This document shows positions 781 through 64,000 of a stretch of 64,000 nucleotides of DNA, piece after piece; the first letter of the stretch is position 1; every line of letters begins with the position of its first letter. The translations under genes and the position numbers were made by a program. The notes beneath the pieces were generated by a model that saw nothing but the letters and a program-made list of their open reading frames with translations, had not been told where the DNA came from and searched no databases. The stretch covers positions 1 to 64,000 of IMG/VR virus record IMGVR_UViG_3300033146_002242. One strand, given 5' to 3'. The stretch is from a virus.

Positions 781-924
781 TTATTCATTTTGATATTTTC
801 CTTTCCATTCTGATAAATCACTAATTTTTATTTTTTTATCATATTTAAATTTCTTAACTTTCATTAGAGCTAATTTACGAGGTGAATAATCGTCTTTTTT
901 ATTTTTTTGTTTCAATTCTGCCAA
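781..924 (-). pseudogene. C-terminal remnant of an AT-rich gene cut by the GC-rich island
   Basis: The minus frame carries a lysine-rich tail (ending SDLSEWKGKYQNE) with codon use like the rest of the phage. Upstream of about 924 the same frame enters GC-richer sequence that belongs to another unit read on the plus strand, and no ribosome binding site precedes the available ATG at 1002. I infer that the 5' part was replaced when the 925-1640 island arrived. A very short intact gene with an unusual start is the alternative. Confidence 0.35.
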
Positions 925-941
925 AGAAGTCCGGTGCCATA

Positions 942-1241
942 GTGGCTCAGTGTTTTGTCTGGAGATCAGATGAAACACTGGTGATTGATTCAATTGAATC
1001 ACCGGACCACATAAACCTGGTAAATCGTATATCAGGTTTATTATATAACGGTATCAAGTCGGTACTGGGTAGACTTGGTATTAAACAAGTCCATATCGGG
1101 AACACCCCGTATGGCATAACAGAGTTATTTTTCACTTGGGATGGGCCATGGCACGACATCGTAAAAGATGTCGATAACCCGATTCTCCCGATAACTCTAT
1201 ATTCTGATGCACGGCGGCAGGTGAGACTGTGCATCGAGTAA
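942..1241 (+). CDS. Unknown protein in a GC-rich hairpin island
   Basis: Open frame from GTG 882 or GTG 942 to 1241. I prefer 942 because composition changes abruptly near 925 and residues before that are read from AT-rich DNA of the opposite gene. Neither start has a clear Shine-Dalgarno. About 99 aa, no family recognised. Base use is much GC-richer than neighbours, and nearly every stretch pairs locally: GTCCGGTG (930) with CACCGGAC (1000), CAGTGTTT with AAACACTG, and CCATA..CGGG with CCCG..TATGG. The stop overlaps the start of the next ORF, suggesting translational coupling. It could be one half of a two-part protein with that neighbour. Confidence 0.45.
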   Translation: MAQCFVWRSDETLVIDSIESPDHINLVNRISGLLYNGIKSVLGRLGIKQVHIGNTPYGITELFFTWDGPWHDIVKDVDNPILPITLYSDARRQVRLCIE

Positions 1242-1627
1242 TAAAAACAATAACCCGTTTAGAAAGGGAGATTTATCCCTATTCTTATCGACAGATGCAA
1301 TGGGTTAAATCCTTTAAAGATTTAGCCGAATATTGCGAAAGTCGCCCATATGTCCACGTATGGGAAACGGGTTATTTATTATATACGAAGCGAGAAATCG
1401 TGGACCTCGCTTCAAAATCTCCAATGTCCATATCCCAGTTAATGGATATTGTGAGAAAATTAAAATCTTTTTATGGAAGTCATTCCATCGAAGCTGATTT
1501 CCGTGAAAAGACTTCATATAAAATTTTAACCTTTGGTGAACGAAAAAATATCATTCATATTATATCTGATTATGAATATGAATGGGATAGAGAAATATTC
1601 CATGAAGTGGAATTTAAATTTCTCTAA
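1229..1627 (+). CDS. Possible GNAT-type acetyltransferase-like protein, 132 aa
   Basis: GTG start overlaps the previous stop by 13 bases. Features include LEREIYPYSYRQM, DLAEYCESRP, EIVDLASK and ADFREKTSYKIL, with the alternating helix-strand feel of small GNAT-like phage proteins. I cannot identify the acetyl-CoA loop with certainty, so this is a weak assignment. Like its partner it is GC-richer than the phage background and full of local inverted repeats, for example GAAGCGAG..CTCGCTTC, CCCATATG..CGTATGGG, and a 12-bp pair between about 1250 and 1375. The island may have been acquired as a unit. Confidence 0.5.
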   Translation: MHRVIKTITRLEREIYPYSYRQMQWVKSFKDLAEYCESRPYVHVWETGYLLYTKREIVDLASKSPMSISQLMDIVRKLKSFYGSHSIEADFREKTSYKILTFGERKNIIHIISDYEYEWDREIFHEVEFKFL

Positions 1628-1848: not shown

Positions 1849-1866
1849 TAAAATATTAAACGGAAA

Positions 1867-1943
1867 CCGCAGACCGGGTGCGGGATATAAGACGGTAAAG
1901 TTCCTTAATAGGATGGGAACTTTTAAAAATAAAAAAGATCCTA
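1867..1943 (+). ncRNA. CCGCAG pseudoknot leader RNA, copy 1
   Basis: Stem CCGCA/TGCGG (1867-1883) closes a loop GACCGGG. Loop bases ACCG (1873-1876) can pair with CGGT (1893-1896), giving an H-type pseudoknot. A second hairpin AAAGTTCC/GGAACTTT (1897-1923) follows. Its loop TAGGAT (1909-1914) can pair with ATCCTA (1938-1943), just before the ribosome binding site of the 1963 gene. Copy 2 at 2485 preserves both pairings with compensatory changes. Probably a cis-regulatory leader. I cannot match it to a named riboswitch class. Confidence 0.6.
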
Positions 1944-1962: not shown

Positions 1963-2151
1963 ATGAACGAATGTAAACACCCCGCAACTCTGGACGATAT
2001 TCGCAAATTTAACATGGACGATAAAAACCCACATCATCCGAAGGGACGGGTGTGGGAAACACATAACGAGGTATTCTATATACCTCGTTATGATGGAGTG
2101 GAAGGAACAGATGGAGCAGTCACTGACATCCTTCCTCTTGATCTTGAATAG
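1963..2151 (+). CDS. Small GC-rich hypothetical protein, 62 aa
   Basis: Start MNECKHPATLDD is chosen over the upstream ATG at 1945 because AAGGAGG sits 5 bases before it. Acidic, His-containing protein with no recognised domain. The gene is preceded by pseudoknot leader copy 1 and followed by a second CCGCAG pseudoknot with a T-run, so it looks like a self-contained transcription unit. The coding sequence holds a perfect 11-bp hairpin (TAACGAGGTAT..ATACCTCGTTA near 2066-2090), CCCACA..TGTGGG, and GGAAGGA..TCCTTCC. Base use is clearly GC-richer than the surrounding phage genes. Confidence 0.6.
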   Translation: MNECKHPATLDDIRKFNMDDKNPHHPKGRVWETHNEVFYIPRYDGVEGTDGAVTDILPLDLE

Positions 2152-2158
2152 TAATAAC

Positions 2159-2205
2159 CCGCAGCTGGACCTACTGCGGAATATAAATTAATAGGTCTTT
2201 TTTTT
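2159..2205 (+). terminator. CCGCAG H-type pseudoknot followed by a U-run
   Basis: CCGCAG (2159-2164) pairs with CTGCGG (2174-2179). The loop bases GACCTA pair with TAGGTC (2192-2197), which is followed directly by a run of T. The fold has the same CCGCAG...GCGG-AATATAA outline as the leader copies but ends in a terminator-like tract. It could stop transcription of the 1963 gene or act as a switch. Confidence 0.5.
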
Positions 2206-2302: not shown

Positions 2303-2443
2303 ATGAGAAAATCACTTGAGCTGTTCTTTTTGGAATTGTCTGTTAAGTTCCATCCAACCCATCCCATAGTCAGAGATATTCTATATAAGATATCTTTGAC
2401 CCTGGGCAATTATCCAAACACGGATGATTGGGGTTGGGATTAA
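2303..2443 (+). CDS. Small GC-rich hypothetical protein, 46 aa
   Basis: Start at 2303 is supported by AAGGAGG 8 bases upstream; the longer frame from 2258 reads through AT-rich non-coding DNA. The protein (MRKSLELFFLELS...) ends in DDWGWD and has no recognised family. The start codon lies inside a small hairpin AGTGAT/ATCACT, and another hairpin (AGATAT..ATATCT flanked by GTCA..TGAC) lies downstream. It sits between the two pseudoknot leader copies in the same island. Confidence 0.5.
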   Translation: MRKSLELFFLELSVKFHPTHPIVRDILYKISLTLGNYPNTDDWGWD

Positions 2444-2451
2444 CTTGTTGC

Positions 2452-2560
2452 GTACAGGGAATTCGATTGGCGAATCCCTGTACACCGCAGACCGGGCGCG
2501 GGATATAAGACGGTATATCTCCTCATACGGATGGGAGATCTCATAAATAAAAAAGATCCG
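2452..2560 (+). ncRNA. CCGCAG pseudoknot leader RNA, copy 2
   Basis: A long hairpin (GTACAGGG, ATTCG / CGAAT, CCCTGTAC; 2452-2483) precedes CCGC/GCGG with loop ACCG pairing to CGGT (2511-2514). The second hairpin is ATCTCC/GGAGAT. Its loop CGGAT (2528-2532) can pair with ATCCG (2556-2560). Compared with copy 1 the second stem changes two pairs (G-C to U-A, U-A to C-G) and the loop-tail pairing changes A-U to C-G, all compensatory. No ORF with a ribosome binding site follows; instead a hairpin-rich non-coding segment does. Confidence 0.6.
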
Positions 2561-2790
2561 CTAACCCCCGGAGAATAGTAGCTAACTCCGTTATCAAAAA
2601 AGCATGTAACTGGGTGATGCAATGTCGTCACCTGCGGTACTGTAGAGTCAAGTACCCGTCTAGGAGTTGGGAACCTAGGGACATATACACGTTAAAACTC
2701 AGCATTCCCGTGTGTGGATTAATTCGGGACAGATATAGCAAGACTATATCGAAGCCAACATGGTGGTATACCATGCTCTGCATTTTTTTT
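2561..2790 (+). ncRNA. Hairpin-rich non-coding segment downstream of leader copy 2
   Basis: No convincing ORF on either strand. The plus strand folds as a chain of hairpins: CGGAG..CTCCG, GGTGATG..CGTCACC, GGTACT..AGTACC, CTAGG..CCTAG, ACACG..CGTGT, ATATAG..CTATAT and CATGGT..ACCATG, ending near a run of T before the stop codon of the minus-strand ribonucleotide reductase gene. Probably a structured RNA expressed with leader copy 2. Identity unknown. Confidence 0.4.
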
Positions 2791-2798
2791 TAATCAAA

Positions 2799-5018
2799 TT
2801 ATCCACATGCTGAATAACCACATGAATGGCAAATAGAACAACCTGATTCATAAGATATAATTCCACCACAATCAGGACATGAACCTCCCTTGTGAATATC
2901 TGTAAAATTTTCAATATCATTTTTTTTGTCTTTATTACCATTCATTTTAATATGTTTTTTAATACATTGTGCAATAGCATCAGCACATGATAAAACTTTA
3001 TTTTCACCAAATCCAATTGGTCTATGACATGATATACCAATTAGTTGTTTAACAATTTCTTCTGGTTTTTGACCACTTCTACATGCTAAAGAAATTAATC
3101 GTCCTATAGCTTCACATTGACTGGATGAACACCCACCCGCTTTTCCAATTGTATTAAAGATTTCAAAAACATTACCATCTTCATCTTCATTAATTGTTAT
3201 ATAAATATCACCACAACCAGTTGTAAATTGATATGTATATCCTTTTAATACATTAGGTCTTTCTTTTTTAATTCTTTCTTTTTGAGCATATTCTTCTTTA
3301 TTTTCTTTTTTTGATTTAATATTTAAAACTTGATTTTGACGGCAATTATTTCTATAGACAGTTACACCTTTACAACCACTTTCAAAAGCCATCATATATG
3401 CTTTTTCAATATCTTTTTCTGTAGCTGATTCTGGAAAATTAATTGTTTTACTAACAGCATTGTTTGTATATTTTTGAAAAGCTGCTTGAATTTTAATATG
3501 TTCTTCTGGTTTAATATCATGTGCAGTTTGTAAAAATAATTTATATTCAGATGGGATATCTTCACAATTTTGACATGTTCCTTCTTCTGCAACTTGTTTG
3601 ATTATTTTTTCTTTATCAATTTTATATCTATCATTTATTTCATCAAGAATTTTATCAAAAACTGGATTTACTTCGAAAAATTCTTTGCCATCCATAATAC
3701 GTCTGACATATGCTAATGAAAATAATGGTTCGATACCACTAGAACAATTAGCTATAATTGATATTGTTCCGGTAGGCGCAATAGTTGTTCTAGTGGAATT
3801 ACGTATGGGGTCTTCTTTGCACTCTGGATATGCACCTCTTTCTTCTGCTAATTGTATTGATTTACCTTTAGCTGTATTATTAATAACTTGCATAACCACA
3901 GATGCAAATTCAACTGCTTTTTGAGAAGAATATGGAATACGTAATTTTATCAATGTATCCGCAAATCCCATAACTCCTAATCCAATATTACGAGTTTTTT
4001 TAGTTTCTTGTTCAATCATTTTTAATGGATACTTATTCATTTCAATTACATTATCTAAAAAATGAACAGCATTATCAACAATGGTTTTCAAACTATTGAA
4101 ATCAAAATATCTTTTTTCTTCATCAACAAATTTTGATAAATTAATTGAACCTAGATTACAACTATCACCAGCTCGCAACACCTGTTCACCACATGGATTA
4201 GTAGCTTCATATTTACCTAAATGTGGTGTTGGATTATAATCATTCATTCTATCAATAAAAATAATTCCAGGTTCACCTGTTTTCCATGCTTGATGTACAA
4301 TTTTATTAAAAACTTCTTTTGCGTTTAATTGTTTAACTATTTTATTATTTCGTGGATTTATTAAATTATATGTGGTGTTATTTTTTACTGCGTCCATAAA
4401 AGAATCGGTGACAGTAACAGAAATATTGAAATTATTTAACTGTGTCAAATCGGCTTTACATTCAATAAATTCAAGTATATCAGGGTGGTCAATACGAAGT
4501 ATACCCATGTTAGCCCCCCGCCTTGTACCACCTTGTTTGACCTCTTCTGTAGCCGCATTATATATTTTCATAAAGGAAATTGGACCTGATGAAACACCAG
4601 ATGTTGATTGCACTTTATCATTTGATGGTCTTAATCGAGAAAAAGAAAACCCTGTACCACCACCAGCTTTATGTATCATTGCAGTATGTTTTAATGTATC
4701 AAATATACTTTCCATTGAATCTTCAATAGGTAAAACAAAACAAGCTGATAACATTGGATTTTTCTTACCAGCATTCATTAATGTTGGAGAGTTTGGCATA
4801 AATTTTTGATTTATCATCATTGAAAAAAATTTATCAGCAGTTTCATCTATATATTCAGATCCATAATTCAAATCACCTTTGGCAATAAAATCAGCAACTC
4901 TATGAAACATTCCATCGGGAGTTTCTAAAAAATTCATATCTTTATCTTTCAATAAATATCTTGTTTCTATTACGTTTTTAGATGTTACTGTTAAATTAAA
5001 AATATTTTTTTCCAACAT
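2799..5018 (-). CDS. nrdJ: Adenosylcobalamin-dependent (class II) ribonucleotide reductase
   Basis: 739 aa, a complete class II enzyme that reduces ribonucleotides to deoxyribonucleotides with a B12-generated thiyl radical. Visible family features are [11 protein letters not shown], the [12 protein letters not shown] region, NPCGEQ near residue 285 with its catalytic Cys, [27 protein letters not shown], and a C-terminal Cys-rich tail ([14 protein letters not shown]). Start at 5018 (MLEKNIF) is chosen because GGAG lies 7 bases upstream; an ATG 21 bases further out lacks one. A terminator lies just upstream, so it needs its own promoter. No nrdA/B or thioredoxin gene is adjacent. Confidence 0.93.
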
Positions 5019-8901: not shown

Positions 8902-9831
8902 TTATAATGTTTTTATTATTTGTTTAATTCCATCTGTTATGGATATAGTTGGTTTCCAATCTAATTTGTTAATAGCTATTGATATATCAGGTTTTCTTTT
9001 CATCGGGTCATTTTCTAAAAAAGATTCATATTTAATTGCCGATGTAGATTCTGTTAAATCCAATATTAGTTTAGCTAAATTATTTATAGATATTTCTTCT
9101 GGATTACCAATATTAACAGGGCCGATAAAATTATTATCATCTTCCATTAATTTAATTAAACCATTTATCATATCATCAATATAACAAAAAGATCTTGTTT
9201 GTTCACCATCACCATATATAATCAATGGATTATTTAAATATGCTTGATAAATAAAATTTGGTATAACTCTACCATCTGTTATTTTCATATATGGCCCATA
9301 TGTATTAAAAATTCTAGCTATTTTTATTTTTGTATTAAATAATTTATAATATGTATAAAAATATGTTTCAGCACATCTTTTACTTTCACTATAACATGCA
9401 CGTGGCCCAATGGGTGATATATTACCATTGTATTGTTCATTTTGTGGATGTACCAATGGATTGCCGTATATTTCACTGGTAGATGCTTGTAATATTTTAG
9501 CATTATATTCTCTAGCTATTTCTAAAATATTATTAACACCACTTGTATTAGTTTGTATAGTTTTTAAAGAATTATTTTGATATGTTTTTGGAGATGCTGG
9601 ACATGCTAAATTATAAATTTCATCAAAATCAGATTTAATTTTTAAAGTATTTCGAATATCATGATTTAAAAAAAAGAATTTATTATATGATCTTAATTGT
9701 TCTAAATCTATATTTAAACTAGATGAACAATCATCCACACATATAACTTGATGGCCATCTTTGAGTAATCGTAAACATAAGTGGTACCCGATAAATCCAA
9801 TACCACCTGTAACTAAGATATTTTTACTCAT
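8902..9831 (-). CDS. NAD-dependent UDP-glucuronate decarboxylase-like epimerase
   Basis: 309 aa, full length for the extended SDR family. TGGIGFIG near the N-terminus is the Rossmann dinucleotide loop, IYNLACPASPKTYQ is characteristic of UDP-glucuronic acid decarboxylases, STSEIYGNP supplies the catalytic Ser region, and YSESK is the YxxxK motif. GPRACYSESKRCAET and YGDGEQTRSFCYIDD match UDP-xylose synthase. It probably makes a nucleotide sugar used by the phage glycosyltransferases at 42-50 kb. One base separates it from the radical SAM gene. Confidence 0.88.
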   Translation of the reverse strand: MSKNILVTGGIGFIGYHLCLRLLKDGHQVICVDDCSSSLNIDLEQLRSYNKFFFLNHDIRNTLKIKSDFDEIYNLACPASPKTYQNNSLKTIQTNTSGVNNILEIAREYNAKILQASTSEIYGNPLVHPQNEQYNGNISPIGPRACYSESKRCAETYFYTYYKLFNTKIKIARIFNTYGPYMKITDGRVIPNFIYQAYLNNPLIIYGDGEQTRSFCYIDDMINGLIKLMEDDNNFIGPVNIGNPEEISINNLAKLILDLTESTSAIKYESFLENDPMKRKPDISIAINKLDWKPTISITDGIKQIIKTL

Positions 9832-49166: not shown

Positions 49167-50219
49167 ATGAAAACACTTTATTTATTTCGTAGCAATTTAA
49201 AATCTTTAGAGTATTATCATAGTATTACTGATGTAGATGATTTTGAAAGAAACTGTCATGATTTTTATTTATTGATGCCTTTTTATTTTTTAAAAATGGG
49301 GATTTTTGATAAAGTTTATATTTATAGATTATCTGATAAAAAAAGAAATACAATAAAATTCAAGGTAAAAAATAGAAAAGGTACAAAGGGTATATTTTAT
49401 CAGGTATTTTCAACTGATAATTTTAAAGATGTTTTTCAAAATCCAGATAAACCAGATGTATCTATATTCAGAGGTGGATTTAAAGAGTATGATACTTTAA
49501 TAAATATGAATAGAAAATTTTTTGGAAAATCTTTTTATTTGGGAGCAAGTCGTAGATTTCATCCTAATTATGGTGGTGAATATGATTATATTTTATATGA
49601 ATCAGAACATGATTTGTTTATGAATCAAAAAAATAATTTCAAGTATAAGAGATTTTTTAAAACAGCTAATCCAAAAATATTTTATCCTAAAGAATTAAAA
49701 AAAGAATTTGATATTATTTGGCCGTGGAAATATACATCTGATTTTCGTAAAGGGGAAAAATTCTTTTTAAATGCTGTTAAAAATAATAATGGTTTAAAAC
49801 AATTAAGGATATATCATTGTGGAAATGAACCGGAAAAAGCTAAAAAACTTTTTAGACAATATGGAATTAATAATATTGTTTGTGATAGTAATAAGCATTA
49901 TCATGACATGGCTGATGTATTAAATATGGGTTTTTGTGGTTTGGTAACAAGTGACAAAGAAGATGGCTGCCCTCGTTTATCTACTGAAATAATGGCATGT
50001 GCCACACCATTGGTAATAAGAGATAAAACTCGTATATTGAATTATTATCGAGGTGGTGGAATGTTAAGATATTATGATGAACATTCAATGTATAATCAAA
50101 TTATATATGCTATTAAAAAATATGATTCTATAAGAAATTCTTTAAAAGAACGATTGCTACATGATTTATCAATTGAAACAATATGTGAAATGAATTTAAA
50201 AGAATGGGGAATTATATAA
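49167..50219 (+). CDS. GT-B type glycosyltransferase-like protein
   Basis: 350 aa. FCGLVTSDKEDGCPRLSTEIMACATPLVI is the nucleotide-sugar binding block; FRGGFKEYDTLI and FYLGASRRFHPNYGGEYDYIL fill the N-terminal half. Last gene of the cluster; a strong two-way terminator follows 2 bases after its stop. Confidence 0.65.
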   Translation: MKTLYLFRSNLKSLEYYHSITDVDDFERNCHDFYLLMPFYFLKMGIFDKVYIYRLSDKKRNTIKFKVKNRKGTKGIFYQVFSTDNFKDVFQNPDKPDVSIFRGGFKEYDTLINMNRKFFGKSFYLGASRRFHPNYGGEYDYILYESEHDLFMNQKNNFKYKRFFKTANPKIFYPKELKKEFDIIWPWKYTSDFRKGEKFFLNAVKNNNGLKQLRIYHCGNEPEKAKKLFRQYGINNIVCDSNKHYHDMADVLNMGFCGLVTSDKEDGCPRLSTEIMACATPLVIRDKTRILNYYRGGGMLRYYDEHSMYNQIIYAIKKYDSIRNSLKERLLHDLSIETICEMNLKEWGII

Positions 50220-50221
50220 AA

Positions 50222-50260
50222 AAAAATCTTCCTTCCCAAATGAGAGGAAGGAAGATTTTT
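50222..50260. terminator. Bidirectional terminator between convergent operons
   Basis: AAAAATCTTCCTTCC pairs perfectly with GGAAGGAAGATTTTT over 15 bp, with A/T tracts at both outer ends. It ends the glycosyltransferase operon and the convergent membrane-protein gene. Confidence 0.9.
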
Positions 50261-50265
50261 CCGGA

Positions 50266-51198
50266 TTAGTTATTCCAGTTTATCTGACCTGGAGTAACTT
50301 TTCCATAACAGTTAATGGTGATGTTGAAATTAGCCTGAGCTATTTCAACATCACCATTTTCTGTTATTTTAATTTTCACCGGGGCCGGCGAAACAACCGC
50401 CAACCCCGGCTTTCCATTGATATCAATTCCCGACCCAGGGATTACAATAGCTGGATCGGGGATATCTTCTTCATCGCCATCACTACAAATGATGGCGATG
50501 TCATCTACACCTCCCTTCTTTTTTAATACACCTCCGATTACAAGGTGTTCCATTTTGCTATCATTGGGGTCGGCTGCGAACCACGCCGCTAAATCCCGCA
50601 GCCGATCGTTTAATATTTTTTTCTCAATAGGTGAATCTGGTACCAGGCCTCGATTCACCCACACTTCAAAACCCCCAGCTTCCACCTTGTAGAAACTGGG
50701 AGTAACTAATTGCTTAGCCTTGTCCATAAAGGACTCGGCTTTTTTATTTTTTGTTGCGGTTTCTGTCTTATTATTAATCAAGTCAGTGGAGCAATTCCTG
50801 ACTTGATTAATGGCCCATGGCGCTGCTGTTGCCATGATTCCAATAGCAACAGCAGCAACTATGTGTCCTTGAAGGAGATTGGCCGACTCCTCCAAACCCT
50901 TGCCGACAATCAGGTTCTTTACGAACCAAATTCCGGCAAGGGAACCAATTCCTAGAATAATTAACCCGCCCAATGGATGGTTTCCCATCCACCAGCGGGT
51001 TATATAAAAACCAGCTGGGGCCGAGCATATTGCCCAGCACCACAGCCAGAATCCCCTATGGGATTCATCAAGACGACGAATCCCATAGAATGCCCCAATA
51101 ATGGTCAGGAAGGTCCCGACCATTAATAGATCATTTACTGTTATAGCGATGCTGTGCAGCACCGCCATTACTTGTTCATAAATAGTTTGTTCGTTCAT
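50266..51198 (-). CDS. GC-rich hairpin-saturated membrane protein, 310 aa
   Basis: Three or four hydrophobic segments (about residues 20-40, 48-66, 74-95 and 112-130) are followed by a soluble C-terminal domain with a Pro/Gly-rich tail. No signal peptide or known family. The DNA is strikingly GC-rich against the phage background, and the coding sequence is a chain of perfect inverted repeats: AATGGTGATGTTGAAAT (17 bp), ATTAATCAAGTCAG (14 bp), CTATGGGATTC, GCTGCTGTTGC and CATCGCCATCA (11 bp each), all with short loops. A CCGCAG pseudoknot leader and an SD-in-loop hairpin lie upstream. Confidence 0.65.
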   Translation of the reverse strand: MNEQTIYEQVMAVLHSIAITVNDLLMVGTFLTIIGAFYGIRRLDESHRGFWLWCWAICSAPAGFYITRWWMGNHPLGGLIILGIGSLAGIWFVKNLIVGKGLEESANLLQGHIVAAVAIGIMATAAPWAINQVRNCSTDLINNKTETATKNKKAESFMDKAKQLVTPSFYKVEAGGFEVWVNRGLVPDSPIEKKILNDRLRDLAAWFAADPNDSKMEHLVIGGVLKKKGGVDDIAIICSDGDEEDIPDPAIVIPGSGIDINGKPGLAVVSPAPVKIKITENGDVEIAQANFNITINCYGKVTPGQINWNN

Positions 51199-51217
51199 AC
51201 CAAACCTCCTTTGGTAT
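51197..51217 (-). promoter_or_regulatory. Ribosome binding site in a hairpin loop
   Basis: On the minus strand ATACCAAA and TTTGGTAT form an 8-bp stem with GGAGG in the 5-base loop; the AT of the start codon lies in the stem. Translation of the 310-aa membrane protein would depend on this hairpin opening. Confidence 0.6.
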
Positions 51218-51232
51218 TAAAATTAAAAGATT

Positions 51233-51306
51233 ACCGTTTTATATTCCGCGCCCGGTCTGCGGTCTCCTATTTAATTTATATACCATAGTAGGATTAACTA
51301 TGGTCA
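51233..51306 (-). ncRNA. CCGCAG pseudoknot leader RNA, copy 3
   Basis: Minus strand CCGC/GCGG with loop ACCG able to pair to CGGT, the same core as the copies at 1867 and 2485. Immediately upstream is a hairpin CCATAG..CTATGG whose loop TCCTA can pair with TAGGA just before the core. The second downstream hairpin of copies 1 and 2 is replaced by the SD-in-loop hairpin. Together they form the 5' leader of the GC-rich membrane-protein gene. Confidence 0.55.
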
Positions 51307-51453
51307 CAATAACAATAAGATTGTTATTAGTATTAATTAATATATATAATAAAGTTGAGTTAAATAAATTGATAATTTATTATTTTTATTATAATTAAAT
51401 AGTGTTATTATATATATTCATTCTTGATATTTGAGATTGGTTTTTATTTTTAG

Positions 51454-51467
51454 AGAACATAAAAATA
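51454..51467 (+). promoter_or_regulatory. T4-late-like promoter motif AGAACATAAAAATA
   Basis: Close match to the recurrent motif, 37 bases before the QueC-like start at 51504. Confidence 0.5.
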
Positions 51468-51503
51468 CATTCATATATTATATTGCAAGGAGGTTTAAAC
51501 GAT

Positions 51504-52094
51504 ATGAATTCTATAGAGAAACCATCATATAATTATGATTTGATTATTTTATTTTCGGGTGGTGCTGATAGTGCCATGTTACATGATTTAGCAATATCAT
51601 CAAAAAGACATCCAATTTATTTAATGATTGATTATGAACAATTGCATAAAGAAGAATTACAATATGCTAAAAGATTGTTAGAATATTGTAAATCTATTCA
51701 ACATTCACAAACTGTAAAAATTCAGAATTTAAAAATAAATTCTGGTTTGACAGGTGATGGTGAAGTAAATCAATATAATAATGTTCATCCTTTTCATGTA
51801 CCATCTAGAAATCTTATGTTTATCTCGATTGCAGCTTCTATTGCAGAAGCTAATAATATTGATACTATTTGGTATGGCGCTGATTTATCAGATAGGGAAA
51901 ATTTATTTCCTGATTGTTATCAGGAATGGATTATAAAAGTTAATGAACTTTTGAAAATAAATGGAAGTAAACCAATAAAATTGGAAGCTCCATTAATAGG
52001 AATGACAAAAGATTCTATTTTACAATATTTGAAATCTAGAGGTTATAGAGAAGAAATTATTTTTTCTGGATATGGTAATTTAGATAAAAATTAA
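51504..52094 (+). CDS. queC: QueC-like 7-cyano-7-deazaguanine synthase, lacking the zinc Cys cluster
   Basis: 196 aa. LFSGGADSAMLHDLA is the PP-loop ATP pyrophosphatase motif, FHVPSRNLMFISIAASIAEA and YGADLSDRENLFPDCYQEW are QueC signatures. Bacterial QueC ends with a four-Cys zinc site; here the protein ends EEIIFSGYGNLDKN without it. Start at 51504 follows AAGGAGG. QueC converts carboxy-deazaguanine to preQ0, used for queuosine or for 7-deazaguanine DNA modification in phages. No queD, queE, folE or dpdA partner is in the window. Confidence 0.78.
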   Translation: MNSIEKPSYNYDLIILFSGGADSAMLHDLAISSKRHPIYLMIDYEQLHKEELQYAKRLLEYCKSIQHSQTVKIQNLKINSGLTGDGEVNQYNNVHPFHVPSRNLMFISIAASIAEANNIDTIWYGADLSDRENLFPDCYQEWIIKVNELLKINGSKPIKLEAPLIGMTKDSILQYLKSRGYREEIIFSGYGNLDKN

Positions 52095-52825: not shown

Positions 52826-53391
52826 TCACTAAATAAGAGTGAGGCGGGCCTCGGCTAAGCAGAATAAATATTATATATATTTGCTCACTAAATAAGTGAG
52901 ATATTGTTGTGTTGTTTGGATAAATATTATATATGTTTGCTCACTTATTTAGTGAGACTGGATTTTTCCCTATCATCAGAATATTAATTAGATAAAAACA
53001 TATTTGCTCATTAAATAAATGAGATATAACCTGGCCGTTATTTTAATTAAATATTATGTATTTGCTCACTAAATAAGTGAGAGATTATGTTCTTTTGATT
53101 TAGGTATTAAAGTATTTTGAATAATATATGTTTGCTCATTAAATAAATGAGACAGGGCGTAAGAAGGTAAAAATAAATGAAATAGATTCATTTATAATAT
53201 ACAACATTATAAAGTTAAATAGTTTGTTCACTAAATAAGTGAAATGAGATTATTTTGTTTTTTATTAGATTATTAATCAAATAAAAACATGTTTGCTTAC
53301 TAAACAAGTGAGATGGGGATAGAGAGTTTGGACGTAAATCAGGTTTTTAAAATAAAATATATGTTTGCTCATTAAATACAATAAAAATGAG
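52826..53391 (+). repeat. Array of nine covarying hairpin repeats
   Basis: Nine copies of a 17-base inverted repeat, typically CTCACTAAATAAGTGAG, start near 52826, 52884, 52940, 53007, 53065, 53135, 53227, 53296 and 53369. Most are preceded by an AT-rich arm ending TATGTTTG, giving a repeat of about 38 bases separated by unrelated 15-45-base stretches. Stems covary: CTCAC/GTGAG, CTCAT/ATGAG and TTCAC/GTGAA. The loop of the third copy is inverted. This fills the 660-base gene-free region 52821-53484. It is not a CRISPR array because repeats diverge and spacers are irregular. Confidence 0.75.
53164..53240 (+). repeat. Duplicated 3' end of the 52140-52820 gene inside the hairpin array
   Basis: About 75 bases here match 52764-52838, covering the last codons of the LigD-POL-like gene plus the first hairpin, with a two-base insertion and a few substitutions. 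It shows that the array grew by duplication of gene-end plus hairpin. Confidence 0.75.
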
Positions 53392-53484
53392 AAAAGTAGC
53401 TAATGTAATTTGTTTTAAAAAATAAAAAGAGTTATATATATTTATAAATAGTAGAAATGATTATAATTTTATATAGGTAATAAA

Positions 53485-54015
53485 ATGAAAGCTAATATTG
53501 AAAAAGAAAAACTTTTTAAAAAGTTTATAGATAATGGAGAAATTTGGGCTGATAAATATGGTAATATTTATAAGAAAAATGGAACTTGTAAATATCATTT
53601 AAATAATACTGGTTATTATAGATTATCATATAAATCAATAACTATTTTTGTGCATAGGTTGGTTTGGATTTATTTCAAAGGATTGATATATGATGATAAG
53701 CTACAAATTAATCATATTGATGGGGATAAATTAAATAATACTTTGGAAAATTTAGAAATTGTTGATAATAAAACTAATACAAAACATGCTATACTAATGG
53801 GTTTACGAACACCCATATCAGAAAAAACAAAACAATATTTTTCTGAAAAGATAAGGGGGTGCAAAAATATAAATGCAAAATTTACACAATCCGATGTTAT
53901 TTTATATAGGTATTTATATAAAATGGGCAAAATAAATATAAAAACAATTTCTGAAAAATACGATATAACACAACGAAGTGTAAAAAATATGTTGAGTGGA
54001 AAAACATATAATTAA
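53485..54015 (+). CDS. HNH homing endonuclease
   Basis: 176 aa. [20 protein letters not shown] then [19 protein letters not shown] and NKTNTKHA make the HNH_3/NUMOD-type nuclease core (residues about 50-105). The C-terminus ([31 protein letters not shown]) is a helix-turn-helix of the kind used by phage homing enzymes for DNA recognition. It ends seven bases before the tRNA-Leu gene that carries a group I intron, so it is the likely mobility factor for that intron although it lies outside it. Confidence 0.85.
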
Positions 54016-54022
54016 GTTATAT

Positions 54023-54382
54023 GCCCGGATGGCGGAATAGGTAGACGCAAGGGACTTGACTCGTAAATAAATTGAGCGGCATATTTGAAAAAATATGTTT
54101 GAATCGGGTGAATTCAGGGGAACCTTCTTAATTTTATTTAGAATTAAATGGCAATCCTGAGCCAAGACATCAACGCTTTGATGGAAGGTGCAGAGACTAG
54201 ATGGTGAGGAAAGATACGTTTCTCGTAAAACATCATAAGCGCCCGACACCTAAGGATTTTATTTTAATCTATGGTGATGATATAGTCCAGACCACAAACA
54301 TTGTAAAATGGCAATGAAAATTGTAGTGGTACGAAAATCCCTCGTTCGTAAGAACGTGCCGGTTCGATTCCGGCTCCGGGCA
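54023..54382 (+). tRNA. tRNA-Leu(UAA) interrupted by a group I intron
   Basis: Exon 1 is 54023-54057 and exon 2 is 54334-54382, giving an 84-nt tRNA. Acceptor GCCCGGA/TCCGGGC with discriminator A, anticodon stem AGGGA/TCCCT with loop CTTAAAA (anticodon UAA), long class II variable arm CGTTCGTAAGAACG, and T arm GCCGGTTCGATTCCGGC. No CCA is encoded. The exon junction falls after U34, inside the anticodon. It would supply a tRNA for TTA, a very frequent Leu codon in this AT-rich genome. Confidence 0.9.
54058..54333 (+). ncRNA. Group I intron in the anticodon loop of tRNA-Leu(UAA)
   Basis: 276 nt. The upstream exon ends in U and the intron ends in G, as group I splicing requires. An internal GAG can pair with exon CUU to give the P1 U.G pair. 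Core elements are visible: a Q-like AATCCTGAGCCAAG near 54155, R-like GCAGAGACTAGATGG, and S-like GATATAGTCCAGA, with GACTA (54195-54199) pairing to TAGTC (54283-54287) as P7. Insertion after U34 is the same site as the ancient cyanobacterial and plastid tRNA-Leu intron (subgroup IC3). No ORF inside. Confidence 0.85.
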
Positions 54383-54407: not shown

Positions 54408-54638
54408 ATGGAACAACAACATATGTCGAATAGTAAACCCTTATACATACACACATCAGATGGGTGTGTATATCGGGAAGATATATCGTTATATGCCTGT
54501 GATATATCATTTGAAGAAGTTATGGAAAAAGAAGTGAACTATTATATAAATAATGGATATAAAAATATCACTCCTAATGGAGTTGATGTCACTTTTTATC
54601 CTCCCAGTCAAATCCTAAAGTTTACTTATAAACGATAG
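54408..54638 (+). CDS. Small hypothetical protein, 76 aa
   Basis: AGGAGG precedes the ATG. Starts MEQQHMSNSKPLYIHTSDG, no family recognised. Like the other GC-richer small genes here it is rich in perfect hairpins: ATACACAC/GTGTGTAT, ACTCC/GGAGT, and AAATCCTA/TAGGATTT enclosing GTTTA/TAAAC at the 3' end. It lies between the tRNA-Leu and structured RNA A. Confidence 0.55.
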   Translation: MEQQHMSNSKPLYIHTSDGCVYREDISLYACDISFEEVMEKEVNYYINNGYKNITPNGVDVTFYPPSQILKFTYKR

Positions 54639-54639
54639 G

Positions 54640-55115
54640 ATTTAAAAGAATCGACAAAAACTTTTCGTTGTGGTAAATTGTAGTTCGCGAACACCACAAC
54701 ATAGGTGGGTAGATTGCACCTCTCCACCAAAAGTTACAAAACGATTGCCATTCTCGGCCAAGAATGGAAAAAGGTATTATTCGTTTATTGCTCGGAATGA
54801 ATAATATGCTTCGGTGAAGGCATCGGAGAATATAAAAAGAATTAAATAGCTTTGAAAATCAGGATTAACAAATATTGATACTCTCAGATTGCGAAGCCTC
54901 AGAGCTCTTAGATGAGCAGCCGGAGGATAGGCTGAGAGTTGGAGTCGTCGATACAGGGAGTCCAGAGAATACTGTCAAGTCTTAAGGCTTCGGTAGCAGT
55001 ATTTGATGACGGACCCGGTGCAGTGTAGAAGCTAGTCTGGTAACAGAAGGCAAGGCCACCGAAAGGCGCATGGCCCATGCCTCGGATTTGCTTGCGGGGC
55101 TTTTTATCCTAAGGA
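54640..55115 (+). ncRNA. Structured RNA A (copy with long 5' domain)
   Basis: No credible ORF in 54639-55123. The 5' part folds into strong hairpins (GTTGTGGT/ACCACAAC, GGTGG..CCACC, CCATTCT/AGAATGG, ATTATTC..GAATAAT). The 3' part starts with stem ACTCTCAG/CTGAGAGT (54880-54939), then a 112-base block (54940-55051) identical to structured RNA B, then a GC-rich hairpin and a T-run near 55105. Variable 5' half plus invariant 3' half next to tRNA genes is reminiscent of the large phage RNAs GOLLD and ROOL, but I cannot confirm either. Confidence 0.72.
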
Positions 55116-55123
55116 GCGAAATT

Positions 55124-55303
55124 ATGTTATATGAGTGTAATACCGGACTTAACTGTTCTGAGTGTAGAGGGTGTGCTACGCAACTTGAAGTTTGTTCGGA
55201 CTTTATCTCCCTTGAATACCTTTCAGAAGAGTGTACGCACAGAAATCTAGAAATGGAGTTGGAAGTGCCTATAACCAGAGAAAAAACCCCGAGAATATCT
55301 TAG
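55124..55303 (+). CDS. Small Cys-rich hypothetical protein, 59 aa
   Basis: AAGGAGC lies 7 bases before ATG 55124. LYECNTGLNCSECRGCATQLEVC holds five Cys within twenty residues, suggesting a zinc-binding knuckle. It is sandwiched between the two related structured RNAs and is GC-richer than typical phage genes here. No family recognised. Confidence 0.55.
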   Translation: MLYECNTGLNCSECRGCATQLEVCSDFISLEYLSEECTHRNLEMELEVPITREKTPRIS

Positions 55304-55829: not shown

Positions 55830-56140
55830 GGTATCTGTGCATAATAGGGTTAAAGTTCCTCCCTGCTGGATGTGTATAAACCAGTCTACACTTGGTATAA
55901 AGACTAAAGGTGGGGTCGACTCCCATTGCCCGCACTATTTTGACACCTCTGGATTGCGAAGCCTTGTACCCTTGTTTAGAGGGAGCCGAGAGGATAGGCC
56001 AGAGGTTGGAGTCGTCGATACAGGGAGTCCAGAGAATACTGTCAAGTCTTAAGGCTTCGGTAGCAGTATTTGATGACGGACCCGGTGCAGTGTAGAAGCT
56101 AGTCTGGTAACAGAAGGCGCGGGGCGTTTTTTAAAAAAAT
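55830..56140 (+). ncRNA. Structured RNA B (copy with short 5' domain)
   Basis: Outer pairing GTGC..GCAC and GGG..CCC (about 55836-55934) encloses hairpins including ACCAG/TTGGT and a GTGGG-GTCGACT-CCCAT arm that mimics a tRNA T arm. Stem ACCTCTGG/CCAGAGGT (55945-56006) replaces the ACTCTCAG/CTGAGAGT stem of RNA A with full covariation. Then comes the same 112-base block (56007-56118) as RNA A, followed by GCGGGGCG and six T, a plausible terminator. 56141-56312 is AT-rich with nothing evident. Confidence 0.72.
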
Positions 56141-62649: not shown

Positions 62650-64000
62650 ATGAAGAAAGTTGTTGTGAGAAAATATAGATGTTGGGAGCCTTTGAATATG
62701 GGGCAGGATGTAATTACCCAGTTGTGGTTGCAAAATCAAATGTGGAATAAATTAGTAGAGATGGAACAAAATTTATATAAGAAGTATAGAGAAGTTATGT
62801 CTACTGATACAGCAGTAGCTGAAATTGAAGAAAAATTAACTCAAAATGATACTGCTATTAAAGCATATATGGAAGAAAGAAATGAAATAAGGAAAAAACT
62901 TAAAAAGAAGAAATGTGCTGAAACAGCATATTTTGATGAACAAATTAAAGAATTATCAGCAGAATCAAAAGAGCTTCGTAAGATAGCTCGGGAAAAAAGA
63001 AAAGAAGCAAAAGAAAAAGTTAAACCTTTACTTGATGAAATCAATCAAGAAAGAAAGGAAAGAAGAAAAAAAATATATCAAAATTCGGGGTTGTTTTGGG
63101 GTAATTATAACAGAGTCATGGCATCATTTGATATCGCTGTATCAAAATCGATGAAAACTGGCAGCACTTTACGTTTTCATCGATTTGATGGAACTGGAAT
63201 TTTTAAAAATTTCTTGTCCCCCGGCCGAACAAATGATGACATGTTAAATGGAAAGTTAAGTTACTTACATTTACAGGACATTCCTGCTGAGTCATTTAAT
63301 GATTATATCGGTAGAAATAATCCATGTAAAATGGTTCTCGGTAGTCGTAGAGAAAGATCACGAAAATATGGGCTTCTCAAATTCACGATTTATCGAGGAA
63401 AAGATGAAGAAGGAAATAGAATAAATAGAATGTTAGAAATGCCAGTGCTGCTTCACCGTCCATTGCCAGATGATGAAGATTTATTAATTAAAGAAGCCGT
63501 TGTACGGCGGGAGTGTGTATCACCCGGTGAATATAGATGGTTTTTTATATTAACATATGTTGGTGGTGAATTTCAGCCAGTTCAACATGTTAATACTGGT
63601 AGTGTTGCTGGTATTAACATGGGTTGGAAAACTGTCAATAATAATACATTGCGAATTGCTACTTTGGTGTCGGATAAAGAAACAGTACATTTCATTCTAC
63701 CAGAAAAAATTATGAAAACATATGATTATTTAAATCAATTAAAATCGGAAGTCGATAGCATGATTAACCATGCTATTGCTAGAATAAAAGAGATTATGAA
63801 AGATGATGATGAACTTCCTGAATCAATGGGAGTTTATTTAACCAGAATAACAAAGGCCAAACGGCCGCGATATGATTTATTAGAGAAAATGATGTGGGTA
63901 TGGGATAAAGAATTGTCATATAAACCAGAAGAATTTTCTGAGGCAAAGGCTCATTTTGATTATCTTAATCGTGTTTTATCTGAGATGAATAATTTGAGAG
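62650..64000 (+). CDS. Cas12m-like (type V) effector, 5' 450 codons, RuvC-I Asp replaced
   Basis: AAGGAG lies 8-9 bases before the ATG, and the frame is open to the window edge. LFWGNYNRVMASFDIAVSKS then STLRFHRFDGTGIFKNFL, VLLHRPLPDD, WFFILTYVG and SVAGINMGWKTVNNNTLRIA follow the order of Cas12m (c2c10) proteins. A charged coiled coil (residues about 45-140) lies in the recognition lobe. The RuvC-I Asp position is Asn323 (GINMGW), so DNA cleavage is probably lost; Cas12m proteins bind targets and silence them without cutting. The C-terminal third, with RuvC-II, RuvC-III and zinc ribbon, is outside. Composition is richer in GC than neighbours. A TnpB-like relative is the alternative. Confidence 0.78.
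   Translation, partial: MKKVVVRKYRCWEPLNMGQDVITQLWLQNQMWNKLVEMEQNLYKKYREVMSTDTAVAEIEEKLTQNDTAIKAYMEERNEIRKKLKKKKCAETAYFDEQIKELSAESKELRKIAREKRKEAKEKVKPLLDEINQERKERRKKIYQNSGLFWGNYNRVMASFDIAVSKSMKTGSTLRFHRFDGTGIFKNFLSPGRTNDDMLNGKLSYLHLQDIPAESFNDYIGRNNPCKMVLGSRRERSRKYGLLKFTIYRGKDEEGNRINRMLEMPVLLHRPLPDDEDLLIKEAVVRRECVSPGEYRWFFILTYVGGEFQPVQHVNTGSVAGINMGWKTVNNNTLRIATLVSDKETVHFILPEKIMKTYDYLNQLKSEVDSMINHAIARIKEIMKDDDELPESMGVYLTRITKAKRPRYDLLEKMMWVWDKELSYKPEEFSEAKAHFDYLNRVLSEMNNLR

What the first reader, a model, noticed from the sequence alone, without database searches (positions are those of the whole stretch)
50266..51198. A coding gene built from consecutive perfect hairpins
The GC-rich 310-aa membrane-protein gene contains many perfect inverted repeats with 8-17-bp arms and 5-15-base loops in tandem, for example AATGGTGATGTTGAAAT paired across 11 bases, ATTAATCAAGTCAG, CTATGGGATTC, GCTGCTGTTGC, CATCGCCATCA, CGGCTGCG and GGTGAATC. 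Ordinary genes in this window do not look like this. The encoded protein is intact, so synonymous and conservative choices appear tuned to make a maximally folded mRNA. Possible reasons are RNase resistance, RNA packaging, translational pausing for membrane insertion, or an RNA-level parasite or decoy.
Basis: seen in the sequence. Interest (0 to 1): 0.8.

Follow-up and report, generated by a model that had tools for sequence, protein, structure and literature searches.

The report
Phage gene written in RNA hairpins
In an uncultivated large DNA virus of bacteria, a gene for a membrane protein (and several other genes of the same virus) uses codons chosen so that its messenger RNA folds into about 20 consecutive strong hairpins, a degree of dual coding that exceeds that of two well-known RNA viruses of bacteria and whose purpose is not yet known.

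Summary
The 310-codon ORF at 50266-51198 (-) folds to about -414 kcal/mol. Codon-preserving synonymous shuffles give -285 +- 11 (z -11.6), codon-order shuffles -269 +- 8 (z -17) and dinucleotide shuffles -272 +- 10 (z -13.7). It forms about 20 discrete hairpins, one every 46 nt, spread equally over the membrane and soluble parts of the protein. Imperfect pairs inside the arms are G-U and hardly ever A-C (25:4 over eight structured ORFs of this record), so the structure is selected in the mRNA, not in the DNA and not in an RNA replicated through both strands (MS2 and Qbeta are balanced).

It is not alone. The same 118-kb phage record has further hairpin-coded ORFs (882-1241, 1229-1627, 1963-2151, 81942-82625), and a distant phage record (G020) has about nine. 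One of those encodes a homologue of the 1229-1627 protein (30% identity). The cultured relatives AR9 and phiR1-37 have none. No database held a relative of the 310-aa protein.

Best reading: accessory-gene mRNAs under a second, RNA-level selection. My preferred mechanism is a long-lived transcript in which hairpins block processive exonucleases. Dual-function RNA is the main rival. Mechanism is inference.

The parts
50266..51198 (-). 310-codon ORF (N-terminal hydrophobic segments, soluble C-terminal part) whose mRNA is a chain of about 20 hairpins
51197..51217 (-). initiation hairpin AUACCAAA-(GGAGG)-UUUGGUAU: Shine-Dalgarno in the loop, first bases of the start codon in the stem
51231..51263 (-). 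5'-UTR element ACCGCAGACCGGGCGCGGAATATAAAACGGTA (hairpin CCGC/GCGG whose loop ACCG can pair with CGGT downstream: possible H-type pseudoknot)
   Evidence: 3 copies of the core in the record, 0 expected by chance in the window; the pseudoknot is read from sequence
50222..50260 (.). 15-bp perfect hairpin with A/T tracts, terminator-like in both directions, at the 3' end of the ORF's transcription unit
50305..50367 (-). longest coding hairpin (26-nt arms, 92% complementary, 11-nt loop)
50472..50500 (-). coding hairpin, 11-bp perfect arms
50773..50811 (-). coding hairpin, 14-bp perfect arms
50822..50856 (-). coding hairpin, 14-nt arms with one G-U
51056..51088 (-). coding hairpin, 14-nt arms with one G-U
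882..1241 (+). second hairpin-coded ORF (119 codons from GTG; start uncertain)
   Evidence: excess folding energy 41%, z about -6
1229..1627 (+). third hairpin-coded ORF (132 codons from GTG; ATG at 1295); homologue in phage record G020 is hairpin-coded too
   Evidence: 57%, z -5 to -8
1963..2151 (+). hairpin-coded small ORF (62 codons), preceded by a copy of the 5' element
2303..2443 (+). small ORF (46 codons), weaker case (z -1.4 to -2.4)
1866..1898 (+). copy of the 5' element
2158..2196 (+). variant of the 5' element (CCGCAGCTGGACCTACTGCGGAATATAAATTAATAGGTC; loop GACCTA complements TAGGTC)
2484..2516 (+). copy of the 5' element, upstream of a structured region without a clear ORF
54408..54638 (+). 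small ORF (76 codons), weaker case (z -2 to -4)

Best explanation
This is a genuine protein-coding gene of a DNA phage whose mRNA is under a second selection: its synonymous codons are arranged so that the sense transcript folds into a chain of about 20 discrete, well-defined hairpins. It belongs to a sporadic class of hairpin-coded accessory genes in uncultivated phages distantly related to PBS1/AR9 and phiR1-37, most with their own ribosome-binding site, several ending in strong terminator-like hairpins. Most likely mechanism (inferred): these short accessory transcripts are made long-lived, the hairpins (with the possible 5' pseudoknot and the terminal hairpin) acting as repeated barriers to processive exonucleases from either end, so that a weakly or briefly transcribed gene still gives protein. 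Shown here by calculation: the structure, its mRNA-sense selection, its dependence on codon choice, its recurrence, including in a homologue. Inferred: that it folds so in the cell, and that stability is the trait selected.
For: Folding far beyond every null. G-U versus A-C inside strand-neutral inverted repeats is 25:4 in this record's eight structured ORFs (p = 1e-4) and 38:6 in nine ORFs of other phages (p = 9e-7), but 44:36 in 13 ordinary genes. Excess stems in the window set lie in the two codon phases in which wobble bases can be adjusted (23 and 22 stems against 10 wobble-to-wobble, shuffle null about 12 each). Positional entropy is about half of null (0.24 against 0.47), so the hairpins are well defined. 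SD and AUG accessibility is like that of 47 ordinary ORFs, so the gene looks translatable. The trait recurs in a 30%-identical homologue in a distant phage. Close relatives G001 and G007 lack such ORFs, as expected of gene-linked, exchangeable cassettes. Literature lead: mean CDS structure correlates with mRNA abundance in E. coli (PMC4619774).
Against: No expression, decay or structure-probing data exist for this phage. Single-stranded linkers are not reduced (0.098 against 0.053 null), so endonucleases would still have targets. PMC4619774 also cites work in which computed structure does not predict mRNA abundance. The host and its nucleases are unknown. The codon-phase bias was not reproduced in the other phages' set (40:45:42).
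Confidence: 0.4

Rival explanations
1. Dual-function RNA: the transcript itself is a working structured RNA (scaffold, cage-like or regulatory RNA in the manner of large phage ornate RNAs), and the ORF is a passenger or second product whose codons must keep the RNA fold.
For: In phage record G020 two copies of a composite transcript share a ~300-nt 5' frame (99.7% identical) and a ~160-nt 3' frame but carry different hairpin-coded ORFs between them; both fold at z about -10 against dinucleotide shuffles. Structured non-coding stretches lie beside several structured ORFs (window 2440-2800, 54640-55135; L093:10541-11064).
Against: No Rfam family matches. Hairpin loops in the 310-codon gene share no obvious motif. 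Whether hairpin positions are conserved between the two homologous ORFs was not tested. No such frame surrounds the 310-codon gene.
Confidence: 0.25
2. Translational control: the hairpins slow or meter ribosomes to set dosage or aid membrane insertion or co-translational folding.
For: The protein has hydrophobic N-terminal segments; mRNA stem-loops can pause ribosomes (PMC7282821 and PMC8861025, titles and abstracts only); the start codon of the 310-codon gene lies partly in a hairpin.
Against: Membrane half and soluble half are equally structured (excess 54% and 57%); most other members have no hydrophobic domain that I noticed; SD and AUG accessibility is ordinary.
Confidence: 0.12
3. Evasion of RNA-targeting defences (Cas13, type III CRISPR, ssRNA-cleaving toxins) by hiding target sites in duplex.
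For: Accessory genes in phages are often counter-defence genes (general knowledge, not tested here).
Against: Accessible single-stranded 8-mers are not reduced relative to shuffles in most members.
Confidence: 0.07
4. Co-transcriptional role: nascent hairpins prevent backtracking or R-loops for the phage's multisubunit RNA polymerase.
For: The record encodes an RNA polymerase beta subunit.
Against: Most genes of the same record, which need transcription as well, lack the trait; AR9 and phiR1-37, whose records are annotated with phage-encoded RNA polymerase subunits, have none.
Confidence: 0.06
5. RNA-level parasite, RNA-virus-derived gene or RNA packaged by a hairpin-binding coat protein.
For: Overall folding excess is of the order of that of MS2 and Qbeta genes (28-41%).
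Against: MS2 and Qbeta show balanced G-U:A-C (10:10, 23:18), here 25:4, so only one strand is selected; no replicase or coat gene nearby; no protein relative found; an own RBS and terminator-like hairpin inside a DNA phage.
Confidence: 0.04
6. DNA-level inverted repeats (cruciforms, hairpin-templated mutation) or a side effect of base composition.
For: The antisense strand also folds better than its null.
Against: G-U:A-C asymmetry; composition and codon usage are fixed in the nulls; an ordinary gene of similar GC, the capsid gene (40% GC), shows only 14% excess.
Confidence: 0.02

Closest known systems
GORS (genome-scale ordered RNA structure) of positive-strand RNA viruses
   Same: Sequence-order-dependent structure spread through coding sequence, detected as folding-energy excess over order-randomised controls, present in some relatives and absent in others (PMC3950689).
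   Different: Here single genes of a DNA phage, no RNA genome; excess about 55% against at most 16% in that paper's transcript panel (different randomisation, so only roughly comparable); perfect stems up to 17 bp where the paper reports duplexes never over 11 bp.
Coding hairpins of ssRNA phages MS2 and Qbeta (Leviviricetes)
   Same: Protein-coding RNA of a bacterial virus with pervasive hairpins; 28-41% folding excess measured here.
   Different: Strong hairpins 5-8 per kb here against 0.3-1.0 per kb; one-strand G-U bias here, none there; no replicase, coat or maturation gene.
Large ornate phage RNAs (GOLLD, ROOL, OLE)
   Same: Long, elaborately folded RNAs, GOLLD and ROOL often in phages near tRNA genes (PMC12286853); tRNA genes lie at 59-62 kb of this record.
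   Different: Those are described as non-coding and have Rfam models; no match here, and the structured stretch is itself an ORF.
TnpB/omegaRNA loci
   Same: A structured RNA overlapping the 3' end of a coding sequence (general knowledge); this record has a TnpB-like gene at about 62.7-64.4 kb (Pfam Cas12f1-like TNB domain).
   Different: There the structure is a guide RNA at the 3' end; in the 310-codon gene hairpins fill the whole ORF.

Membership tests
GORS (ordered RNA structure in coding sequence) | Folding-energy excess over order-randomised controls above 3% | tested here: met
   23-59% for the members in the window's record, 59% for the 310-codon gene; threshold from PMC3950689
GORS (ordered RNA structure in coding sequence) | Whole-genome distribution in a positive-strand RNA virus | tested here: not met
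   Only a few of 148 ORFs of a 118-kb DNA phage record
Leviviricetes (ssRNA phages) | Replicase, coat and maturation genes | tested here: not met
   No Pfam, PHROG or PDB match of the protein; neighbours are a weakly glycosyltransferase-like gene and QueC
Leviviricetes (ssRNA phages) | Structure balanced between plus and minus strands (G-U about equal to A-C), as measured in MS2 and Qbeta | tested here: not met
   25:4 against 10:10 and 23:18
Ornate non-coding RNAs (GOLLD, ROOL, OLE) | Match to the family's covariance model | tested here: not met
   No gathering-score match; permissive scans of 850-2800 and 50150-51500 gave only sub-threshold matches to other families
Ornate non-coding RNAs (GOLLD, ROOL, OLE) | Structure supported by covariation among homologues | not testable with these tools
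   No homologue of the 310-codon gene was found; the one homologous pair of structured ORFs is only 30% identical
Long-lived mRNA by hairpin protection | Longer half-life than an unstructured synonymous control | not testable with these tools
   Needs an experiment

The most novel reading that the evidence does not exclude
A previously undescribed class of genetic element in large DNA phages: exchangeable transcripts in which protein-coding sequence and a structured RNA are the same molecule, with conserved RNA frames accepting different ORFs whose codons continue the hairpin chain, so that both RNA and protein act.
Probability: 0.25. Interest if true: 0.92.

Novelty: new variant of a known kind. 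Interest (0 to 1): 0.75.

Why it matters
Pervasive ordered structure in coding RNA is known mainly from RNA viruses, where genome replication, packaging and mRNA functions cannot be separated. Here selection for coding-sequence hairpins appears at greater strength in single genes of DNA phages, with untuned neighbouring genes as built-in controls. That makes an old question (what does coding-sequence structure do for an mRNA?) directly testable with single genes in laboratory bacteria, and it supplies a simple strand test (G-U against A-C) for finding more cases.

Tried and rejected
Homology: no relative of the 310-aa protein by Pfam, PHROGs, PDB, IMG/VR peptide-pattern scans, GTDB genomes, INPHARED and PLSDB tblastn, blastn of the region in INPHARED, or 30 related phage records. 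AlphaFold2 on the single sequence was poor (mean pLDDT 47), so its Foldseek hits are not used. The 5' element as a probe: nine IMG/VR hits to the 17-nt core lack the rest of the element and look like chance; the fuller pattern found none, and none in 30 related records. DNA-level origin, composition and RNA-virus origin were rejected on strand and shuffle tests. The idea of coating the mRNA against single-strand nucleases was weakened. The structured ORF at 64048-64404 was set aside as the 3' end of a TnpB-like gene. AR9 and phiR1-37 (about 250-260 kb each), nine 20-kb stretches of a Staphylococcus S6-like record and five of Listeria LPJP1 gave no clear member (one 54-codon ORF in the S6-like record met the cut-off). 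More homologues of the 1229-1627 protein were sought in IMG/VR and GTDB; only the G020 one was found. A shuffle scan of the whole record timed out and was replaced by a regression scan.

Full report
OBSERVATION. Folded as mRNA it gives -414 kcal/mol for 933 nt. One hundred shuffles that keep the protein and the exact codon counts give -284.6 +- 11.2 (best -320.8); codon-order shuffles give -268.6 +- 8.4; twenty dinucleotide shuffles give -272.3 +- 10.4. Sixty further synonymous shuffles, with pairs limited to 100 nt, gave -246.7 +- 11.3 against -399.4 observed. In a scan of 148 mechanically called ORFs of the whole 118,287-bp virus record it is the top gene. The predicted fold has 20 hairpin apices spaced 46 +- 11 nt.

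RNA, NOT DNA. To ask which strand is selected I found inverted repeats with Watson-Crick pairs only, treating every mismatch alike, and then counted mismatch types. A G-T mismatch is a G-U pair in the mRNA; an A-C mismatch would be a G-U pair only in the antisense RNA. Eight structured ORFs of this record give G-U 25, A-C 4 (p = 1e-4); nine structured ORFs of other phages give 38 and 6 (p = 9e-7); thirteen ordinary genes give 44 and 36; MS2 gives 10 and 10, Qbeta 23 and 18. So the hairpins are selected in the mRNA sense strand of a DNA gene, unlike in the two ssRNA phages.

BY CODON CHOICE. The difference between native and synonymous shuffles (about 130 kcal/mol) is codon choice alone. Over seven structured ORFs of this record, 55 repeats were found against 35 +- 4 in shuffles, and 15 strong ones against 2.2 +- 1.2. 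The excess lies in the two codon phases in which a wobble base pairs with a first or second codon position (22 and 23 stems), not in the wobble-to-wobble phase (10), against about 12 each in shuffles. This suggests a protein-coding template tuned at synonymous sites. The other phages' set did not show this phase bias (40:45:42), so I give it modest weight.

ARCHITECTURE. The structure is a chain of discrete, well-defined hairpins: positional entropy is 0.24 against 0.47 in shuffles. It is not an attempt to remove single strands: the share of single-stranded 8-mers is 0.098 against 0.053. The membrane half and the soluble half of the protein are equally affected (excess 54% and 57%). SD and start-codon accessibility in 14 structured ORFs equals that of 47 ordinary ORFs, although in the 310-codon gene the SD sits in the 5-nt loop of an 8-bp hairpin that also holds the first bases of the AUG. 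The transcript is closed by a 15-bp terminator-like hairpin at 50222-50260.

NOT ALONE. In the same record 882-1241, 1229-1627, 1963-2151 and 81942-82625 are also far outside the shuffles, with weaker cases at 2303-2443, 54408-54638 and 81159-81371. Three copies of a GC-rich element, ACCGCAGACCGGGYGCGGRATATAARACGGTA, precede the 1963 ORF, a structured stretch at 2520-2790 and the 310-codon gene; two variants lie at 2159 and L003:17812. In each the hairpin loop can pair with bases downstream, a possible pseudoknot; this is read from sequence, not tested.

OTHER PHAGES. The phage is a distant relative of PBS1/AR9, phiR1-37 and the Staphylococcus S6 group. An alignment of a shared 219-aa protein brought in 64 related IMG/VR loci. 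A synonymous-shuffle scan of about 1,270 ORFs there and 913 ORFs in five larger records found further members, for example L053:2193-2549, L128:13920-14318 (record G029) and about nine in record G020. G020 holds a homologue of the 1229-1627 protein (30% identity, E 1e-17), and that homologue is even more structured (82% excess, z -12.8). Close relatives G001 and G007 have none, nor do the cultured phages AR9 (303 ORFs) and phiR1-37 (355 ORFs). The trait is therefore sporadic and gene-linked. G020 also carries two copies of a composite RNA with nearly identical 5' and 3' frames around different hairpin-coded ORFs.

CALIBRATION. Excess folding energy over synonymous shuffles is 23-59% for members in this record, 42-82% in the nine from other phages, 28-41% for MS2 and Qbeta genes and -2 to 21% for ordinary genes. 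Strong hairpins number 5.1 and 7.9 per kb in the two structured sets, against 0.3 and 1.0 in MS2 and Qbeta and 1.8 in the AT-rich ordinary genes. In the RNA-virus literature the GORS threshold is 3%, the highest transcript in one panel was 16%, and duplexes were said not to exceed 11 bp (PMC3950689); the randomisation used there differs from mine, so this comparison is rough.

INTERPRETATION. Established by calculation: an intact ORF whose codons encode an mRNA hairpin chain, selected on the sense strand, recurring across phages. Not established: folding in the cell and purpose. I favour transcript longevity by exonuclease barriers, because the hairpins are discrete and strong, spread evenly, independent of the protein's nature, and closed at one end by a strong hairpin. 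In E. coli, mean coding-sequence structure correlates with mRNA abundance (PMC4619774), though the same paper cites contrary data. The main rival is a dual-function RNA, suggested by the modular RNAs of G020. Pausing for membrane insertion, an RNA parasite, DNA-level repeats and shielding from single-strand nucleases are disfavoured by the tests above.

LIMITS. ORFs were called mechanically. Members in other phages were chosen by repeat score, so their weaker cases may be chance; the G-U:A-C test is not biased by that choice, since all mismatches were scored alike. Shuffle numbers are small for some genes (8-16). No homologue of the 310-aa protein exists in what I could search, so covariation, the strongest test, could not be done. 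The literature searches found no report of such genes in DNA phages, but they cover open-access papers only.

Noticed in passing
window 54028-54382: A group I intron (Rfam RF00028, 54055-54306) appears to split a tRNA-Leu-like gene whose halves can be read at about 54028-54064 and 54335-54382; ARAGORN reports no tRNA there.
   Followed up: partly
window 54872-55054 and 55937-56120: Two copies of a GC-rich ~180-nt sequence (GGAGTCGTCGATACAGGGAGTCCAGAGAATACTGTCAAG...), probably a non-coding RNA without an Rfam match; no blastn match for the first copy's region in INPHARED phages.
   Followed up: partly
window 52830-53400: About eight copies of a palindromic repeat, TTTGCTCACTAAATAAGTGAG and variants, at 56-161-nt spacing between the primase-like gene and the ORF at 53485.
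   Followed up: partly
window 62650-64000 continuing to L003:404: TnpB-like gene (C-terminal Cas12f1-like TNB domain, Pfam PF07282) with a structured 3' end followed by an 18-bp hairpin; probably a TnpB/omegaRNA locus carried by the phage.
   Followed up: partly
L091:8661-9370 (+) and L095:14694-15464 (-), record G020: Two composite RNAs with a shared ~300-nt 5' frame and ~160-nt 3' frame but different ORFs between them; no Rfam or INPHARED match.
   Followed up: partly
L093:8224-9140, record G020: Tandem accessory-gene cassettes with an identical ~95-nt leader; 8928-9020 looks like a remnant of a deleted cassette sharing the 3' end of the 9138-9782 ORF.
   Followed up: no
window 51483-52094; L004:3192-3842; L004:19116-19739: QueC (Pfam) and, by eye, QueE- and QueD-like genes: a queuosine-type pathway in the phage, perhaps for DNA modification.
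   Followed up: no
window 781-1002 (-): The minus-strand ORF at 781-1002 seems to change character near 905, where the GC-rich hairpin-coded region begins, as if that region had been inserted into an older gene.
   Followed up: no
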